From positions 1 to 37,556 of IMG/VR virus record IMGVR_UViG_3300037296_000103: a DNA stretch of 37,556 bases; one strand, written 5' to 3'. Shown here one piece after another: positions 2,033 to 37,174 of this stretch. Numbering within the stretch: position 1 is the first letter of the stretch; each line of letters starts with the position of its first letter. A program made the translations under genes and the position numbers. The notes under the pieces are model-generated. The model did no database searches. It was not told where the DNA came from and was given only the letters and a program-made list of their open reading frames with translations. Source of the DNA: a virus.

Positions 2033-5000
2033 TCACAGCCCGGTTTTTTGCATCAGCCGCGCCACGTACTCCAGTTCAAACCCGATGCGCCGTTCGTCGG
2101 CTCCTGGTCTGACCCAGCCCTCGAGAATGTCCCGTCGAAACGCCCCCACAACCTGCGCCAACGGGATACCGAGGGGCTTTGAACAGCGAACAGCGACCGC
2201 GTAGATTTTTTCCGCCAGGCTCAAGGGATACTTTTCTTCGGAGTCTTTAACCTCTCCCTGCAAAGTGTCCCTGTCGCGCTCGAGGGCGCCCTGCTGGGCT
2301 GGGGCTTCGCCTGCAGGCTGCTCGAGGGTTTTCGGCTCGTAAGGGGCCGCCGTCTCGTGCGTGGCCAGTGAGTGAACGCCAATGGCTGCACGCTGCTCGA
2401 CGTAAGCCATGATGACCTGCCAGGTATCGGCATCGATCTCGAAAACATTGCGACCGTTCGTCTTGCGCTTATGCACGCTGACGCCGAGGCGCTCGATGAT
2501 TGATTTGACGACCGTCGTCGCGCAGGCCTTGGCCGTCAGTGAGGGCAACAGGCGCCCCAGCTTGAGGGCGTTGTAAAGATCGAGGCTCGCTTGATCCGCG
2601 CGGATCTCCGCGAGGATCTGGCGGCACTGGTCGACGGTGAAGGATCCCTCGCCCGTGAAGCGGTCCAGGCCGAGCGTTTCGAAGGTCTTGACCAGGAACG
2701 CGCGGGCCGCCGACTTGTAGCGGTGCTGAGTCAGTACGACGCGCGCTTTGCGTTGCGCCTGGTCGTAGGCCTGGGCTTGCTCCTCGCTCGACTGCAGCAG
2801 CTCCATAGCGACGACGCGGCTGATGCCTCGGTCGTCATAGAACGCGACGTCGTCCGGGGTCGGCTCGTCGACGCCGAGTTGATTGGCCATGTGGTAGCGG
2901 TCGACCTGGGCGCTCTCGCGCTCGCTGCGCACCTCCTGGCGATTCAGGCGTGCGAAAGTCTCGTCGTCCGGGGTCTCGACGCTGTTGATCAGATCCATGC
3001 GCTTTTCGAACACCAGGACGGCGCCGAGCTCGCGGTTTGCACGCGATTCCTTGGTGCGCTCCGGGTCGTCCAGGTTGGCGCGATGCACCTGGTAGCCGTC
3101 GCTGATCAGCATCAGCAGGAAGTTATTCGCGAAATCGTTCCGCGCGCGGTTCTCGCTGGTGGTGCTGGCCAGATAGGTGATGTCGAAGGCGGTTTTCTTG
3201 CGAACGAAGCGGACCTCGCCCTCGCCCTCCTCGAAGCCGAACGTCTGTTCGTCAGCCTGCAGCATCCCGCGATAAAGGGCCTCGCTGTCGGTCTGGCGCT
3301 GCGCTGACGCGTGGCCGAGGCCGACCAGGTAGTGACGGGCTGTCCGATCGCGGCGAAGCATCTGGATCGCATCGGAGGGGCTGACGGTCTGGCCGCTGAA
3401 TAGGCCGACGTGGTGGTCGAAGTGCGCGGATCCGCCGAAGGTCATCGACACGCCGGAGCTGATGGCCGGCGAGTAGATCAGCACGTCATATTTCACGGCC
3501 TCGCCGTCGGGGTCGCGCAGGAATGCGGCGACCTCTGGCTCGCCTTTGTTGCCCTGGTGGACGACCAGCATCCGAACGGGCTTGATCTCGCCCGCCTCCT
3601 GGCGCTCCTCGATCACGGCCGCGAGCTTTTTGCAGCTCTCGACCGAGTCGTTCGCCATCAGGACGCGTTTGCCGGCCGAGATCCAGTCGAGGGCAACCTG
3701 CCAGACGGTTTCGTCGTCAGAGTGGTCGACGCGGATGTGCTCGGCGCTGCCGGTCACTTCGATGATGGTGATTTTCTCGCCAGGGCGAGCGAGCTCGCAG
3801 AACTCGACGACGTTGTCGTTCGCGTCGGCGTCGCACAGCAGCACGCGCTTCGCGTCGCGCACGGCGTCGATCAGGGCATCGTAAACGCGGACGCGACCCT
3901 CGACCGGGCCGGAGGCGACGTGGCTGATGACCTGGCCGGCCTCGTCGATGCAAAGGGTGTCCACGGTGGTGAACCAGGAACGCTCGTCGGCGTTGTAGAA
4001 CTTGGGGGCGGTGATCGAGTTGACGCAGCAGGCGAGGTGCGAGACGTCGCGCATCCACGCGGCCATAACTTGCTTGTAGTGGTGGACCAGGCCGTCGGTT
4101 TTATAGCTGCCGTCGCGGTTGCGCGCGGCCTTGCCCTGGTTGTCAGTGACCCGATTCAAACGCGCCGCCGCGTCGTCGAGCAGCGAGACGCGGTGCGCAA
4201 CATAGGCGCCCTTCGCCGCGTCGCGGATCAGTGGTGCGATGACCTTCTCGGTTTTGCCGCTGCCCATGGGCGCGCGCAGGATGATGCAGCCCTCGATCGA
4301 CTCGATCAGGTGAACCAGGTGCGCGGGAATCTCGACGTTGCCATGCGCCTGGCGCACGCCCTCGATGCGTAGGTGCTGAATGTGCCCCTTCGCCAGGGTG
4401 GCCGGCGAGAACGAACGCAGCTCGGCGGCTTGGGTGATCTTTTGCTTTGCGAGCCACTGGCAGAACGACCGCAGCTTAGGCCGGTCGACCTTCGGGCCTT
4501 CCGGGATATGTTCCATCACCAGTTTGAGAACGGCCTCGCCCGAATACTTGATCGGAACCAGCAACATGCCCGCGTTGATCGCCTGGCGCGCGGCCTTCTC
4601 GGCGGTTACGCCGGAGAACTGGAGGCGCTGCAGGGTGTAGGCGAACCAGTCTTTGTAAGGCTTGAACACGGTAGAGCGGGCGCGCAGGGCCTTGGCCATG
4701 GCCTTCAAACCGAAAGCGAGGTGGTAGTCGTTCCAGTCGGTCGGGCCTTTCTTGTCGGCCTTGAACTTGGCGATCGCCTCGGCGCCGAGGGTGTCGAAAT
4801 TAGGCACCAGGGCCGGCGAGTTGCAGTCGCGCGCGAGCTCGAGGGCGGCCAGCATCCCGGCGTTACCTGCGACCGGCTTCCATTGGTCATTATCGACCGC
4901 GTTGCGGATCTGCAGGTTCGGGCATCGCTTGGCGTAGGCGGCGACGACCTTTTTCAGGTTGTCGACGTTGAACGTCACGATTACCGCGACGTTATTTCCG

Positions 5001-5887
5001 GCCTCGTGCTCGGCAAGCCAGACGCTTGCGCCGGTGGCGAAACCTTCGGCGGCATAGACCAGCTCGGCCGACTCGAGGTCGCCGATGATGCAGTGCGCGC
5101 CGTCCATTTTCACGCCGGTGCCCTGGCGCTTCTTGTCAGCGTAGAGGCGTTGCAGGCCGAGGAACAGGCCGTCGATGTTGTACAGGGGAACCGCTGTAAA
5201 ATAACCGTGACCGTCACGCATACGCTTCATTTGAAAGCGTGACACAACCGCGCTGATGCCTTTGGCGACCAGGTAGGGGGCCGATCCGTCCTCGTCGCTG
5301 ATCAGCTCGACGAAGCCGTCGCGGATCTTGCCGCCGGCTTCGTATTGGTAGGCATGGCGTCCGCCGCAGTGCCAGGTCGACTCGTAGGCCAGGCGCTCGC
5401 CCTGGACCATGGCCTCGGCCTTGCGGGCCTTCTCCTCGGCGGCCTTGCGTGCCGCCTCGCGCGTGGCGCGCTCGGCTTCCTGCTTTTTCAGCCACTCGTC
5501 ATGCTTCTTGCTGGTAGTCGTGCCGCCCTGCTCGCGGAAAAGTTCGAGCAGCGCCGCGAAGCCTGACCAGCTCGATTTGCCGACGGCAGGATTGTTGTTC
5601 GTGAAGTTGACGAAGGGATACTCGAACTCGTCGGCCCGCTTGATCGAGGCCCACGCCATGACCTTGCCCCGGTGGGCCTTGTCAGTGACCGAGGCCGCGC
5701 CTTTGGGGCGAGTCTTTTGGCCATCCCAAGTGATGTCGCGTTGCAGCGCCGACCATTTAATGCCGACGTCTGCCGCAGCGGCGGCGATGTCGTGCTCGAA
5801 ATAATCGACCAGGGCATAAGGGTCAGAGCGAAACCGTTCCTCATAGAAACGGGCGAGCGCGCTTGTGTTGTCATTCCTATTGTGCAT
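2033..5887 (-). CDS. repA: RepA: multidomain primase-helicase replication protein
   Basis: The 1284-residue protein is close in size to N15 RepA (1324 aa), the single replication protein of that linear plasmid-prophage. A Toprim-like primase region shows AEGFATG (E281), VDNDQW (D332, D334) and TDWND (W385). A helicase follows with Walker A APMGSGKT (539-546, K545) and a DEAG box (D648/E649), then a region with SSGVSM and a QMLRRDRTAR helicase motif, resembling origin-binding-protein helicases. The C-terminal 300 residues are charged and may bind DNA. The start is ATG 5887 because AAAGGAA lies just upstream; an upstream TTG at 5920 has no such support. In N15 the origin lies inside repA; I cannot locate it here. 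The ribosome-binding region is embedded in an 8-bp-phased repeat array. Confidence 0.88.
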   Translation of the reverse strand: MHNRNDNTSALARFYEERFRSDPYALVDYFEHDIAAAAADVGIKWSALQRDITWDGQKTRPKGAASVTDKAHRGKVMAWASIKRADEFEYPFVNFTNNNPAVGKSSWSGFAALLELFREQGGTTTSKKHDEWLKKQEAERATREAARKAAEEKARKAEAMVQGERLAYESTWHCGGRHAYQYEAGGKIRDGFVELISDEDGSAPYLVAKGISAVVSRFQMKRMRDGHGYFTAVPLYNIDGLFLGLQRLYADKKRQGTGVKMDGAHCIIGDLESAELVYAAEGFATGASVWLAEHEAGNNVAVIVTFNVDNLKKVVAAYAKRCPNLQIRNAVDNDQWKPVAGNAGMLAALELARDCNSPALVPNFDTLGAEAIAKFKADKKGPTDWNDYHLAFGLKAMAKALRARSTVFKPYKDWFAYTLQRLQFSGVTAEKAARQAINAGMLLVPIKYSGEAVLKLVMEHIPEGPKVDRPKLRSFCQWLAKQKITQAAELRSFSPATLAKGHIQHLRIEGVRQAHGNVEIPAHLVHLIESIEGCIILRAPMGSGKTEKVIAPLIRDAAKGAYVAHRVSLLDDAAARLNRVTDNQGKAARNRDGSYKTDGLVHHYKQVMAAWMRDVSHLACCVNSITAPKFYNADERSWFTTVDTLCIDEAGQVISHVASGPVEGRVRVYDALIDAVRDAKRVLLCDADANDNVVEFCELARPGEKITIIEVTGSAEHIRVDHSDDETVWQVALDWISAGKRVLMANDSVESCKKLAAVIEERQEAGEIKPVRMLVVHQGNKGEPEVAAFLRDPDGEAVKYDVLIYSPAISSGVSMTFGGSAHFDHHVGLFSGQTVSPSDAIQMLRRDRTARHYLVGLGHASAQRQTDSEALYRGMLQADEQTFGFEEGEGEVRFVRKKTAFDITYLASTTSENRARNDFANNFLLMLISDGYQVHRANLDDPERTKESRANRELGAVLVFEKRMDLINSVETPDDETFARLNRQEVRSERESAQVDRYHMANQLGVDEPTPDDVAFYDDRGISRVVAMELLQSSEEQAQAYDQAQRKARVVLTQHRYKSAARAFLVKTFETLGLDRFTGEGSFTVDQCRQILAEIRADQASLDLYNALKLGRLLPSLTAKACATTVVKSIIERLGVSVHKRKTNGRNVFEIDADTWQVIMAYVEQRAAIGVHSLATHETAAPYEPKTLEQPAGEAPAQQGALERDRDTLQGEVKDSEEKYPLSLAEKIYAVAVRCSKPLGIPLAQVVGAFRRDILEGWVRPGADERRIGFELEYVARLMQKTGL

Positions 5888-5890
5888 TTT

Positions 5891-5930
5891 GTTCCTTTGC
5901 GCAAAAACGCAAAAGCACAAAAGAACATTC
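5891..5930. promoter_or_regulatory. 8-bp-phased repeat array before repA
   Basis: Five consecutive octamers occupy this stretch: GTTC-CTTT, GCGC-AAAA, ACGC-AAAA, GCAC-AAAA and GAAC-ATTC. Four of the five boxes fit GNNC and most spacers are A/T runs. The array covers the repA ribosome-binding site and the bases before it. Matching arrays lie at 9826-9897, 12125-12204 and 37127-37174. A protein bound here would hinder repA transcription or translation. The best candidate is the ribbon-helix-helix ParB encoded at 36138-36434; this is inference. Confidence 0.6.
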
Positions 5931-5939
5931 GTTAGACAC

Positions 5940-6112
5940 TCGACCGCGTGGTGCTACACTTGAACTTCAACATTCGCTGTTGGCTACAACTGAATAACCT
6001 GCCCGCAAAACAGATTATTCGCCAAAGGTTGAGCTCTACTGTTGCACCCTTTCGGGGTCGGCAGTCATTCGAATAAGGCCCCGGGGTTACCAGCCCCCGG
6101 GGCTTTTTCTTT
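5940..6112 (+). ncRNA. Candidate antisense RNA over the repA leader
   Basis: The segment is noncoding on both strands yet ends in a strong rightward terminator (6078-6112) with no rightward gene before it. The simplest explanation is a short rightward RNA complementary to the leader of the leftward repA message, as in counter-transcript copy-number control. I find no convincing promoter: the best -35-like words (TTGAAC at 5960, TTGGCT at 5980) lack a well-spaced -10. The 5' end given is arbitrary. Confidence 0.3.
6078..6112 (+). terminator. Orphan rightward terminator in the repA leader
   Basis: A perfect 9-bp stem (GCCCCGGGG / CCCCGGGGC, 8-nt loop) is followed by TTTTTCTTT. The opposite strand has no T-run after the hairpin, so it acts rightward, although no rightward gene lies upstream. 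Confidence 0.8.
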
Positions 6113-6193: not shown

Positions 6194-6859
6194 TTATCGA
6201 ATAACCCCCTTTTCGATGATCATTCGCATGCCTGTCACGACCCCTACAACCTGGAAATTCCCGTCGATCGAGACCATCGGGAATTGAGGGTTTAGCGGTC
6301 GAAGGTACCGCTGTGCTCCGTCCTGGATCAACCTTTTAAACGTCAGCTCCTCGGCCTTGTGCGTATAGCCGACGACCAGGTCGTTCGCCTCGGCCACGCG
6401 CCGAGGGTTCACGAAGATGGTCGACCCGGCTGGAAACGCCAAGCCGCTGGGTGAATGCATGGTGTCATCGGGCACGATTAGGGCGAACATGCCGGGCGTC
6501 GAATTCTCAGGCGGTAAAACCCACGGGGTATTAGCTGGAAGCCGCGTAATATCGGGGTTTAGCTTCCATTCTGCCGCCATGTGCCACGGTACGACGGGTA
6601 CCCTTTCGGCGGTTTCTGTGGGGTTCCGAACGGCGCCGGGGTTGGTCGCTTCCTCGATCAGCGCCTCGACGGTAGTGCCCAGCGCTTTCGCCACTGCATA
6701 AGCGGCCATCACGTTGGGCAGGCTCATGCCGTTCTCGGTCGTCGATAGCGTGCTCGTATTGATCGCGTTCCCTGCTGCCTCGCATAGCGCCGACTGGCTC
6801 CATCCGCGTGCCTGCCGCCGCGCCTTTATGGCCGGCCCGATGTGCTGAATATCTTTCAT
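6194..6859 (-). CDS. CI-like phage repressor (HTH plus S24-type domain)
   Basis: The 221-residue protein has an N-terminal helix-turn-helix (about 8-60, GWSQSALCEAAG) and a C-terminal LexA/CI-like S24 domain (about 95-215). It should bind the operators at 6888-6960 and keep lytic genes off. The position of the usual catalytic serine (family pattern G/D-D-S-M) is occupied by threonine: PDDTM. The partner lysine is present (TFKRL). No clear Ala-Gly or Cys-Gly cleavage site is visible in the linker. It may therefore not self-cleave with RecA, or do so poorly. The ATG at 6859 has GAGGG upstream. It is divergent from the early operon and points at repA. Confidence 0.82.
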   Translation of the reverse strand: MKDIQHIGPAIKARRQARGWSQSALCEAAGNAINTSTLSTTENGMSLPNVMAAYAVAKALGTTVEALIEEATNPGAVRNPTETAERVPVVPWHMAAEWKLNPDITRLPANTPWVLPPENSTPGMFALIVPDDTMHSPSGLAFPAGSTIFVNPRRVAEANDLVVGYTHKAEELTFKRLIQDGAQRYLRPLNPQFPMVSIDGNFQVVGVVTGMRMIIEKGVIR

Positions 6860-9642: not shown

Positions 9643-9866
9643 CGCGCCAGGTTCTGCGAATCGACCGCTGCACTGATCCGCTCATGTGGTACCGCGAGCA
9701 CGTCGGCTACCTGGTCGACTATCGCGGCCCGGACGGCCCGAACTTCTACCTGTCGCGCGAGGTCGCTGGTTACACAAACATCGTTCGCCGTGGCGACGCC
9801 ACGCTGCTCGAACTGGAAGACGAAGCCATAAAAGAACAAAAGAACATTTGCACTTTTAGGCATTAG
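9639..9866 (+). CDS. Last early-operon protein, unknown
   Basis: The 75-residue protein starts at ATG 9639 with an ATGA overlap. It is compact, with many aromatic residues (MWYREHVGYLVDY, NFYLSREVAGY), and no family is recognised. Its last eleven residues are encoded by the 8-bp-phased repeat array at 9826-9897, so the array either extended into the gene or constrains its C-terminus. Confidence 0.6.
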   Translation: MTRQVLRIDRCTDPLMWYREHVGYLVDYRGPDGPNFYLSREVAGYTNIVRRGDATLLELEDEAIKEQKNICTFRH

Positions 9867-9897
9867 CGAAAAAATGCAAAAGGGGTATTGCACAAAA
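9826..9897. promoter_or_regulatory. 8-bp-phased repeat array at the late promoter
   Basis: Nine consecutive octamers have spacers made only of A and T (AAAA, AAAA, ATTT, TTTT, ATTA, AAAA, AAAA, TATT, AAAA) in an otherwise GC-rich genome. Boxes are CCAT, GAAC, GAAC, GCAC, AGGC, GCGA, ATGC, GGGG and GCAC; four match GNNC. The last unit overlaps the -35 of the candidate late promoter. See the arrays at 5891, 12125 and 37127. Confidence 0.6.
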
Positions 9898-9916
9898 GTC
9901 CGGATTAAAGTCTAAT
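9888..9916 (+). promoter_or_regulatory. Candidate late promoter
   Basis: The -10 box TCTAAT (9911-9916) differs from consensus at one base. It is spaced 17 nt from TTGCAC (9888-9893). The transcript would run through two terminators into the lysis genes, as in Q-dependent late operons. Confidence 0.5.
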
Positions 9917-9944
9917 AACTGCTCTAATGCGACACATGCAAACC

Positions 9945-9969
9945 AAAAGCCCGCCACGTGCGGGCTTTT
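9945..9969. terminator. First leader terminator before the late operon
   Basis: A perfect stem AAAAGCCCGC / GCGGGCTTTT with a 5-nt loop can act in both directions. It lies about 25 nt after the expected late transcription start. Confidence 0.8.
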
Positions 9970-10045
9970 GCGTTTCTGGTCGAAGCGTCCGCAAGCGGCG
10001 CACCTCTCCCTGATCCGCCGGCCCTCTCGCTTTCGGATCCCTTCG

Positions 10046-12124: not shown

Positions 12125-12204
12125 CAAGGCGCAAAAGCGGATAAGTTTAAAAGGACTTATGCGCTTTTGTTCCTTTGTTCCTTAACTCCTTTGGTCCTTT
12201 CTCC
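12125..12204. promoter_or_regulatory. 8-bp-phased repeat array before terS
   Basis: Read on the minus strand, ten octamers occur in register: GGAG, GACC, GAGT, GAAC, GAAC, GCGC, GTCC, AAAC, CCGC and GCGC, each followed by a mainly A/T tetramer. Six boxes fit GNNC. It ends 2 bp before the terS ATG and replaces any ordinary Shine-Dalgarno sequence. If terS is translated, a bound protein here could interfere; the array may also mark the packaging region. Confidence 0.5.
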
Positions 12205-12206
12205 CC

Positions 12207-12779
12207 ATGGGCAAGATCGTCAGCAAAAAGGAGTTCGGGGAACTGATCGGCAAGTCGCCGCGCTGGATCTCCAAACTGATCGAGGAAGGCATGCCAACGG
12301 CAGGCGGTGGCGGTCGGGGCGTCGAGGTCCAGATCGACAGCGAGGCCGCGATCAATTGGCTGATCGCCCGCGAGGTTCGCCGCGAAATGGGCGAAGACGG
12401 CGACGACGAGGAGGGGCTCAATTCGGCCTCGACCGAGGATCGCCTGCTCAAGAAGGCCCGCCGCGAAAAGCTGCAGATCGAAATCGACACGTCACGCGGT
12501 CGCCTGCTGCCGGCCGACGCGGTCGCGCAAATTCTGATTAGCGTCGCCGCCGTCTACGCGACCCAACTTGACGCGCTGCCCTCGCGCTGCGCTGCCGACC
12601 TGGCGGTGATCGATGACCCTGCCACCATCCGAGCTCGAGTTTTTGAAGAAACGCGGCGTATCCGCGCGGCTACTGCCGACCGTCTCGAACGTCGAGCATC
12701 TGACCTCGCTGCGGACCTTGACGAAATCGATCAAGCGAGCGGCGAAGATGGTCCAGGCGCCGCCGCCTCGGACCGCTGA
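12207..12779 (+). CDS. terS: Terminase small subunit (Nu1-like)
   Basis: The 190-residue protein opens with a winged-helix DNA-binding domain (VSKKEFGELIGKSPRWISKLIEEGMP) like lambda gpNu1, which recognises cos and loads the large subunit. A helical middle (KKARREKLQIEIDTSRGRLLPADAV) provides oligomerisation and TerL contact in this family. The start has no good Shine-Dalgarno sequence; the upstream bases are a pyrimidine-rich repeat array. It overlaps TerL. Confidence 0.87.
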   Translation: MGKIVSKKEFGELIGKSPRWISKLIEEGMPTAGGGGRGVEVQIDSEAAINWLIAREVRREMGEDGDDEEGLNSASTEDRLLKKARREKLQIEIDTSRGRLLPADAVAQILISVAAVYATQLDALPSRCAADLAVIDDPATIRARVFEETRRIRAATADRLERRASDLAADLDEIDQASGEDGPGAAASDR

Positions 12780-36137: not shown

Positions 36138-36434
36138 TCAGTTCAAGGCGTCCAGGCGCCGTTTCAGTTCGGCGACATTGCCGACGTCGAACCGCCCCTC
36201 GCCGCGCTTGTACTTCTCGAACAGGTCGTCGATCGCCTCGAGCAGCAGATGCTTTACCGGCGTCTCGCTCATGCCCTTAATTTCCTGCAATCCCTGGTGA
36301 TAGCGCTTCGGCGCCAGCAGCGGGATTTTCTTCTCGGTCGGGTCGTTGGTTACCGCCGCGCGCGCCTTCTCGACGTGTGCGGGCGTGGCCGGCGCTGCGC
36401 CGCGCTGGCTGGGGCGTTGGGTGCTCAGGCTCAT
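36138..36434 (-). CDS. parB: Small partition protein ParB (ribbon-helix-helix, ParG-like)
   Basis: The 98-residue protein overlaps parA by 4 bp (ATGA). The N-terminus is Pro/Ala-rich and disordered, as in ParG, whose mobile tail stimulates the ParA ATPase. Residues 35-75 (KIPLLAPKRYHQGLQEIKGM, then SETPVKHLLLEAIDDLFEKY) fit a ribbon-helix-helix domain: a short strand and two helices. Unlike ParG it has an extra 20-residue helical tail. It should bind the centromere and repress the parAB promoter. The array at 37127-37174 is the obvious target. Confidence 0.8.
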   Translation of the reverse strand: MSLSTQRPSQRGAAPATPAHVEKARAAVTNDPTEKKIPLLAPKRYHQGLQEIKGMSETPVKHLLLEAIDDLFEKYKRGEGRFDVGNVAELKRRLDALN

Positions 36435-37078
36435 TGCAGGATCTCCAGAACTTCGGTGGTCAGTGCTTCGATCTCGGCCCGCGCCTCGTCGGTGGGTCGC
36501 AGATCCATCACGCTCCGGCCCTTCGGCACGCCGTCAACGTAGGCGACGCGCTGGTGCGTGCGAGCCTCGAGGATGGGCAGCTCTAGGCCCTGCAGCGCGC
36601 TCTCGACTTCGCGCGCCAGGCGCGTGCCCTGGATCGCTCGCGCCACCAGCATCGCGGCGCGTGGTTTCCCGTCGGCCAGCTCCTGCCGGTCTTTCACGAG
36701 CTGCACCAGGTCGCCACATGCCCAGATGTCGTACTGGCTCGGCTGGACCGGGATCAACACCAGGTCGGCGACCTTGATCGCGGCCGACGTTAGCTCGCTG
36801 ACCTGCGGGATCCCGTCGATGACCACGAACTCATAGGCGCCAGCCACGCGCGGCAGGTCGCGCGCCAGTTGCTTGCCCATGGAGATAACCGGCACGTGCC
36901 AGGCGACGTCGTTGCCGTCCTGTGCGGCGGCCCAGTCGGTCGCCGAGCCTTGGTCGCTGTTGAGGTCTACGATCAGCACGCTATGGCCACGCGCAGCGAT
37001 GCACGCGGCGAGGTTGGTGGACGTGGTCGTCTTTGTGGTGCCGCCCTTTTGGTTGAGCACCGAGATTATTTTCGGCAT
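36431..37078 (-). CDS. parA: Partition ATPase ParA (short, type Ib)
   Basis: The 215-residue protein has the deviant Walker A of ParA/MinD proteins, KGGTTKTT (11-18, signature lysine K11, catalytic K16), a DLNSDQGS box and a VIDGIPQ segment. It lacks the N-terminal helix-turn-helix of type Ia ParA, as usual when paired with a small ribbon-helix-helix ParB. It would form ATP-dependent patterns on the nucleoid that move plasmid copies apart. ATG 37078 follows AGGA at 8 nt. The upstream ATG at 37156 lies inside the repeat array and promoter and is rejected. Confidence 0.9.
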   Translation of the reverse strand: MPKIISVLNQKGGTTKTTTSTNLAACIAARGHSVLIVDLNSDQGSATDWAAAQDGNDVAWHVPVISMGKQLARDLPRVAGAYEFVVIDGIPQVSELTSAAIKVADLVLIPVQPSQYDIWACGDLVQLVKDRQELADGKPRAAMLVARAIQGTRLAREVESALQGLELPILEARTHQRVAYVDGVPKGRSVMDLRPTDEARAEIEALTTEVLEILQ

Positions 37079-37119: not shown

Positions 37120-37148
37120 AGAATAGGAACAAAAGAACAAAAGAGCAA
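37120..37148 (-). promoter_or_regulatory. parAB promoter
   Basis: On the minus strand a -35 TTGCTC (37148-37143) and -10 TATTCT (37125-37120) are spaced by 17 nt. The spacer and -35 coincide with three units of the 8-bp array, so array binding would repress the operon. Confidence 0.65.
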
Positions 37149-37174
37149 TAGAACATTTGTACAAAAGATCATAA
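37127..37174. repeat. Six tandem 8-bp repeats, candidate centromere and operator
   Basis: Six octamers run without gap: GAAC-AAAA, GAAC-AAAA, GAGC-AATA, GAAC-ATTT, GTAC-AAAA and GATC-ATAA. All six boxes fit GNNC and all six spacers are pure A/T. The 4+4 layout matches the tetramer-box plus A/T-spacer operators of ParG-type proteins. It lies immediately before parA and overlaps its promoter. Confidence 0.75.

What the first reader, a model, noticed from the sequence alone, without database searches (positions are those of the whole stretch)
37127..37174. Six perfect-phase GNNC-W4 octamers at the parA promoter
All six boxes and all six A/T spacers fit the pattern, and the array covers the -35 and spacer of the parAB promoter. 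This matches the tetramer-box plus A/T-spacer operators of ParG-like ribbon-helix-helix proteins. The same phased pattern recurs at three other control regions, suggesting a dispersed regulon of the partition protein, comparable in idea to the scattered N15 centromeres but with a different protein type.
Basis: partly seen in the sequence, partly recalled or inferred. Interest (0 to 1): 0.85.

Follow-up and report, generated by a model that had tools for sequence, protein, structure and literature searches.

The report
Dispersed partition-protein operators in telomere phages
A virus that lives in bacteria as a linear plasmid carries the same 8-bp-spaced binding pattern at four control points (its segregation, replication, late-gene and DNA-packaging genes), probably so that one small segregation protein can both share out the plasmid and help keep the virus quiet.

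Summary
Window 37127-37174 holds six consecutive perfect GNNC+W4 octamers upstream of parA. Three further in-phase arrays lie at the repA start (5891-5930), the late-promoter region (9826-9905) and the terS leader (12129-12200), and nowhere else. Shuffles give none.

The window is a telomere phage (linear plasmid prophage) related to phiHAP-1 and VP882. Arrays recur at the same four positions in relatives: parA 17/17, repA 17/17, terS 16/16 scored, late region 14/16. N15 and PY54, which use another ParB type, have none.

The box letters switch together at all four sites. Phages whose ParB has KKIP at the predicted DNA-reading strand use GAAC/GTTC (64 boxes, against 1 GTAC). Phages with KQLK use GTAC (35, against 0). 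This supports one protein, ParB, reading all four arrays. ParA's nearest solved relative is TP228 ParF, partner of ParG, which binds tetramer boxes with AT-rich spacers.

Best reading: a ParF/ParG-like type Ib partition system with dispersed operator/centromere arrays that autoregulate parAB and probably couple segregation to replication, late-gene silence and packaging. Binding, centromere activity and regulation are inferred. The RHH fold of ParB has only weak direct support. One recombinant (G007) breaks the box rule at terS.

The parts
37127..37174 (.). parA-promoter array: six perfect GNNC+W4 octamers (proposed ParB operator/centromere)
   Evidence: array also at this position in 17/17 phages examined
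37120..37148 (-). parAB promoter: -10 TATTCT (37125-37120), 17-bp spacer, -35 position TTGCTC (37148-37143) lying inside the array
   Evidence: sequence; same array/-10 phase in other clades; not called by the sigma-70 scanner
36431..37078 (-). parA, 215 aa, ParF-like Walker ATPase
   Evidence: Pfam AAA_31 7.5e-23; PDB best hit TP228 ParF 4dzz 3.4e-25
36138..36434 (-). parB, 98 aa, proposed RHH centromere-binding protein
   Evidence: Antitox_RHH hit in 23/25 homologues, below the curated cut-off in the window protein; ribbon-helix-helix order of elements in a low-confidence model
5891..5930 (.). repA-leader array (5 in-phase octamers), ending just upstream of the repA ATG and containing its Shine-Dalgarno-like AAAGGAAC
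   Evidence: 17/17 phages
2033..5887 (-). repA, primase/helicase replication protein
   Evidence: phrog_4913, 1.5e-295
9826..9905 (.). late-region array (10 in-phase units, several degenerate) downstream of Q and lar
   Evidence: 14/16 phages
9888..9916 (+). late-promoter-like TTGCAC-17-TCTAAT, its -35 inside the array, followed by terminator 9944-9970 and the lysis genes
   Evidence: sequence, terminator; TTGCGC-17-TCTAAT in G005 and TTGACC-17-CCTAAT in G017; not called by the sigma-70 scanner
12129..12200 (.). terS-leader array (9 in-phase units), ending 6 bp before the terS ATG (12207)
   Evidence: 16/16 phages scored
37459..37556 (.). 98-bp perfect palindrome: telomere (protelomerase target), where the contig folds back
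   Evidence: protelomerase gene 157-1740 +

Best explanation
The arrays are binding sites of the phage's own partition protein ParB (98 aa, probably ribbon-helix-helix), one dimer per GNNC box with A/T spacers, cooperatively along an 8-bp-period array. Shown here: the arrays are real, confined to four control regions, conserved by position across related phages, and switch box type together in step with ParB's predicted DNA-reading strand. Inferred: (1) at parA the array embeds the -35 and spacer, so bound ParB represses parAB (autoregulation). (2) One or more arrays act as the centromere; ParB on DNA stimulates the ParF-like ParA through an N-terminal tail (invariant R25 is a candidate arginine finger) and segregates the low-copy linear prophage. 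(3) At repA the array covers the ribosome-binding region and abuts a conserved promoter of a small RNA running opposite to repA, so ParB level feeds into copy control. (4) At the late promoter and terS leader, bound ParB helps keep late and packaging genes silent in the prophage.
For: Shuffle tests; same four positions in relatives with 5-unit scores of 23-30/30, p 0.003 against local Markov shuffles for nearly all; reversed-pattern control 0 in 20 records; concerted box switch matching KKIP versus KQLK in ParB; none in N15, PY54 or an unrelated Vibrio phage-plasmid with a distant ParA. A DNA-only search with a 17-base piece of the array hit L127, which proved to be a new member with the array at its parA promoter, a KKIP ParB, GAAC boxes and no GTAC. 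ParA nearest to ParF. ParG's parH site is tetramer boxes with AT-rich spacers, and ParG also represses at the parFG operator (PMC7308502; PMC5016525).
Against: No binding or expression data. ParB's RHH membership is weak: Pfam hits below the cut-off, no PDB sequence hit, AlphaFold monomer pLDDT 54 with no strand formed. All replication, lysis and packaging proteins also co-vary with clade, so the box switch does not exclude another reader. In recombinant G007 the terS array is of GTTC type although its ParB is KQLK type. The late array was not found in G011 and G014.
Confidence: 0.78

Rival explanations
1. ParB binds only the parA array (operator plus centromere); the other three arrays belong to other readers that share an 8-bp A/T-phased architecture, such as RepA iterons at repA, terminase TerS (cosB-like) at terS, and Q or a host factor at the late promoter.
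For: Each array lies beside the gene of a plausible alternative reader. In G007 the terS array follows the terS module rather than ParB type. The terS array ends in a near-invariant GGTCCTTTCTCC..ATGGGCAAGAT, as expected of a packaging site.
Against: Four unrelated readers would all have to use GNNC+W4 at exactly 8 bp and switch between GTAC and GAAC/GTTC together. Iterons usually have longer units (own knowledge).
Confidence: 0.15
2. The arrays are structural A/T-phased DNA (host nucleoid-protein sites or promoter UP-like elements), not specific operators.
For: The spacers are A/T runs in a 64% GC genome, and the arrays lie at gene control regions.
Against: The G and C of each box and the exact 8-bp register are conserved while box centres switch by lineage; 8 bp is out of helical phase; N15 and PY54 have none.
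Confidence: 0.05
3. Chance pattern in A/T-rich intergenic DNA.
For: Short A/T-rich runs are common in promoters; unrelated A/T-rich viral loci chosen for holding two octamers do hold occasional 4-unit arrays (12 in about 0.6 Mb outside the family).
Against: 0 in shuffles; positional conservation in relatives; reversed-pattern control 0.
Confidence: 0.02

Closest known systems
TP228 ParF-ParG-parH (type Ib partition)
   Same: ParF-like ATPase; small CBP with a disordered N-terminal tail; tetramer boxes with AT-rich spacers; array at the par promoter (PMC7308502, PMC5016525)
   Different: TP228 has its operator and centromere together upstream of parFG; here arrays sit at four distant control regions of a phage; ParB is not detectably homologous to ParG by sequence
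pSM19035 delta/omega with six parS sites
   Same: RHH CBP whose repeat arrays overlap promoters of partition and copy-control genes (copS, delta, omega), serving as both centromere and operator (PMC9499535); four contiguous repeats are needed there, and arrays here have about 5-10 units
   Different: 7-bp contiguous heptads without spacers; a Gram-positive plasmid; no late or packaging genes involved
N15 SopB and IR1-IR4
   Same: Linear plasmid prophage with several separate centromere sites (PMC7205306; location in control regions from own knowledge of Ravin and Lane 1999, Grigoriev and Lobocka 2001)
   Different: SopB is a large HTH ParB with single inverted repeats; no octamer arrays in N15
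phiHAP-1, VP882, VHML, vB_VpaM_MAR
   Same: Same phage type, ParA relatives, arrays of the same period
   Different: Arrays are not annotated in the records seen; Vibrio and Halomonas members use mainly GTAC boxes, and three of them have an extra array upstream of a small leftward gene

Membership tests
Type Ib (ParF/ParG-like) partition system | Small ParF-like Walker ATPase without an N-terminal HTH | tested here: met
   215 aa; best PDB matches 4dzz (TP228 ParF, 3.4e-25) and 5u1g ParA, the latter cited in the TP228 complex paper
Type Ib (ParF/ParG-like) partition system | CBP encoded directly downstream of parA, with a ribbon-helix-helix domain | tested here: inconclusive
   Position met (36138-36434, overlapping parA by 4 bp). 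RHH: Antitox_RHH hits in 23/25 homologues, 20.6 bits against a 27.2 cut-off in the window protein; low-confidence model with unstructured tail, extended segment, helix 43-55, helix 60-76
Type Ib (ParF/ParG-like) partition system | Disordered N-terminal tail with an arginine finger acting on ParA | tested here: inconclusive
   Residues 1-38 have pLDDT below 50; R25 is invariant in 23 homologues; no activity test
Type Ib (ParF/ParG-like) partition system | Array of short repeats overlapping the par promoter | tested here: met
Type Ib (ParF/ParG-like) partition system | CBP binds the array, represses parAB, and the array acts as centromere | not testable with these tools
   needs EMSA, reporter and stability assays
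ParG proper (sequence family) | Detectable sequence homology to ParG | tested here: not met
   profile searches of the PDB sequences found no ParG
N15-type SopB partition | Large HTH ParB and inverted-repeat centromeres | tested here: not met
   ParB is 98 aa; sites are direct octamers; N15 lacks arrays
Telomere phage (linear plasmid prophage) | Protelomerase gene and telomere palindrome beside it | tested here: met
   ResT-TelK_cat 5.7e-28; 98-bp perfect palindrome at the contig end

The most novel reading that the evidence does not exclude
The partition protein of these telomere phages is a genome-wide prophage regulator: by coating arrays at parAB, repA with its opposing small RNA, the late promoter and terS, it ties segregation, copy number and lytic silence to one protein level, so that loss or titration of ParB helps trigger lytic growth.
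Probability: 0.35. Interest if true: 0.8.

Novelty: new variant of a known kind. Interest (0 to 1): 0.62.

Why it matters
It would show that telomere phages with an unrelated partition protein arrived at the same layout as N15: partition sites scattered over replication and lytic control regions. It would also place a type Ib CBP as a link between plasmid segregation and the lysis-lysogeny decision in VP882-like phages, where lysis control is being studied but partition is hardly discussed beyond gene naming in the passages read here. The box/strand correspondence across lineages gives a ready set of natural specificity swaps to test.

Tried and rejected
Chance and simple A/T-richness: rejected by shuffles, period and reversed-pattern controls. 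AlphaFold monomer of ParB: too low in confidence (pLDDT 54); Foldseek on it gave nothing. PDB profile searches with ParB: no hit. Rfam on the window: no match. RNAalifold on the repA-cI small RNA: no good consensus beyond the terminator. A set-aside lead, L144 (29% GC, three arrays in 7 kb), showed no relative of the window's ParA or ParB in the 7 kb held. Wu 2011 and Ravin and Lane 1999 were not in the paper library.

Full report
WHAT IT IS IN. The window is a 37.5-kb virus record with 64% GC. It has a protelomerase (157-1740 +; Pfam ResT-TelK_cat), a RepA-type replication protein (2033-5887 -), a CI-like repressor (6194-6859 -), a CII-like activator, a Q-like antiterminator, Lar, an endolysin and terminase, and parA-parB on the minus strand next to a 98-bp perfect palindrome at the contig end. 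This is a telomere phage of the phiHAP-1/VP882 type. Relatives lie in Pseudomonas and Stutzerimonas contigs and in Pseudomonas plasmid records.

THE ARRAY. The six octamers at 37127-37174 all fit GNNC+W4. The window holds exactly four arrays at a strict 4-unit threshold (at least 22 of 24 positions), and shuffled sequence holds none. Read in phase, the repA array has 5 units, the late-region array 10 (some degenerate), the terS array 9 and the parA array 6.

POSITION. parA: the array runs over the -35 position and spacer and abuts the -10-like hexamer. The same register between array and -10 occurs with TATTCT, TAATCT and TATATT in different clades. repA: the last units contain the Shine-Dalgarno-like AAAGGAAC and stop at the ATG (5887); on the other side the array abuts the -35 of a promoter pointing away from repA (5933-5960). 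Late region: the -35 (TTGCAC, 9888-9893) of a 17-bp-spaced promoter-like pair lies in the array, followed by a strong terminator (9944-9970) and the lysis genes, the layout expected of a Q-controlled late promoter (inference). terS: the array runs to 6 bp before the ATG.

CONSERVATION. In 16 relatives with usable sequence (14 IMG/VR contigs, phiHAP-1 and VP882) plus the window, best 5-unit scores upstream of parA are 25-30 of 30 (16 scored; the array of the 17th, G015, is). Upstream of repA they are 23-28 (17/17), upstream of terS 25-29 (16/16 scored; phiHAP-1 was not scored there but has an array at 39134-39173, just before its record end, with terS at base 1). In the late region 13 score 26 or more and G012 has its array some 370 bp after lar; G011 and G014 lack it. 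Nearly all have p = 0.003 (the floor) against Markov shuffles of the same stretch. VHML, MAR and the Pseudomonas plasmid pPHPALO418 also carry arrays at parA. N15, PY54 and a Vibrio phage-plasmid with a distant ParA have none. The pattern read backwards gives zero matches in 20 records where the forward pattern hits 18.

CONCERTED SWITCH. Grouping phages by the residues at the predicted ribbon of ParB, KKIP phages (window, G001-G003, G005, G006, G010, G017) have 64 GAAC/GTTC boxes and 1 GTAC over all arrays. KQLK phages (G008, G011, G012, G014, G016) have 35 GTAC and 0 GAAC/GTTC. Leaving the parA array out, the counts are 42 to 0 and 0 to 16 (distinct arrays counted once per group; these are related sequences, so counts are not independent events). 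phiHAP-1 and VP882 use mainly GTAC. A switch at four non-homologous places in step with one protein's reading strand is the main evidence that ParB reads all four. The exception is G007: its ParB and its parA and repA arrays are KQLK/GTAC type, but its terS module and terS array match the G005 type, consistent with recent module exchange. A DNA-only search with an array fragment then hit L127, which on inspection is a new member that obeys the rule (KKIPLLAP ParB, GAAC boxes, array at parA followed by TATTCT).

PROTEINS. ParA's closest solved relative is TP228 ParF over its full length. ParB homologues hit Antitox_RHH in 23 of 25 cases but below the curated score in the window protein. The AlphaFold monomer is poor (pLDDT 54) yet has the order unstructured tail with a helix at 19-29, extended segment, helix 43-55, helix 60-76, as an RHH chain would; the ribbon forms only in the dimer (own knowledge). 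In TP228 the ParG tail folds into a helix on ParA and carries an arginine finger (PMC5393062; PMC5016525); here R25 in the predicted tail helix is invariant in 23 sequences. This is a lead, not a test.

MECHANISM. Most likely ParB binds each array cooperatively, represses parAB, nucleates a partition complex at one or several arrays, and modulates repA/small RNA, late and terS expression. The binding steps are strongly suggested; the regulatory outcomes are inferred from where the arrays sit. pSM19035 omega is the best precedent for one RHH protein whose parS sites overlap promoters of partition and copy-control genes (PMC9499535).

LIMITS. No experiment; no dimer model; co-variation cannot separate ParB from other clade-specific proteins except through recombinants, of which only one was seen. 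The literature search covered open-access papers only and found no description of these arrays.

Noticed in passing
window 5933-6106 +: Conserved putative small RNA between repA and cI, running opposite to repA: promoter with -35 abutting the repA array, core CTGCCCGC(T)AAAACAG in nearly all relatives, strong terminator at 6075-6106; no Rfam match. Candidate antisense copy-control RNA for repA.
   Followed up: partly
L002:22689-22736, L105:22250-22289, L001:23805-23836: VP882, MAR and phiHAP-1 have an extra array directly upstream of a small leftward gene of unknown function (phrog_27479 in the two Vibrio phages); no counterpart seen in the window.
   Followed up: partly
L144:88-127, 1929-1992, 6307-6338: An A/T-rich (29% GC) virus contig carries three similar 8-bp arrays, one upstream of an integrase-like gene, without a relative of this ParA/ParB in the 7 kb held: perhaps another operator system of the same architecture.
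   Followed up: partly
window 12160-12220: Near-invariant GGTCCTTTCTCC..ATGGGCAAGAT at the terS start and no clear Shine-Dalgarno: possible packaging (cos) site overlapping the terS array.
   Followed up: no
L070 (G007), terS array 36992-37031 of the record: Apparent module exchange in G007: terS/terL and terS array of the Stutzerimonas-type phages joined to KQLK-type par and rep modules.
   Followed up: partly
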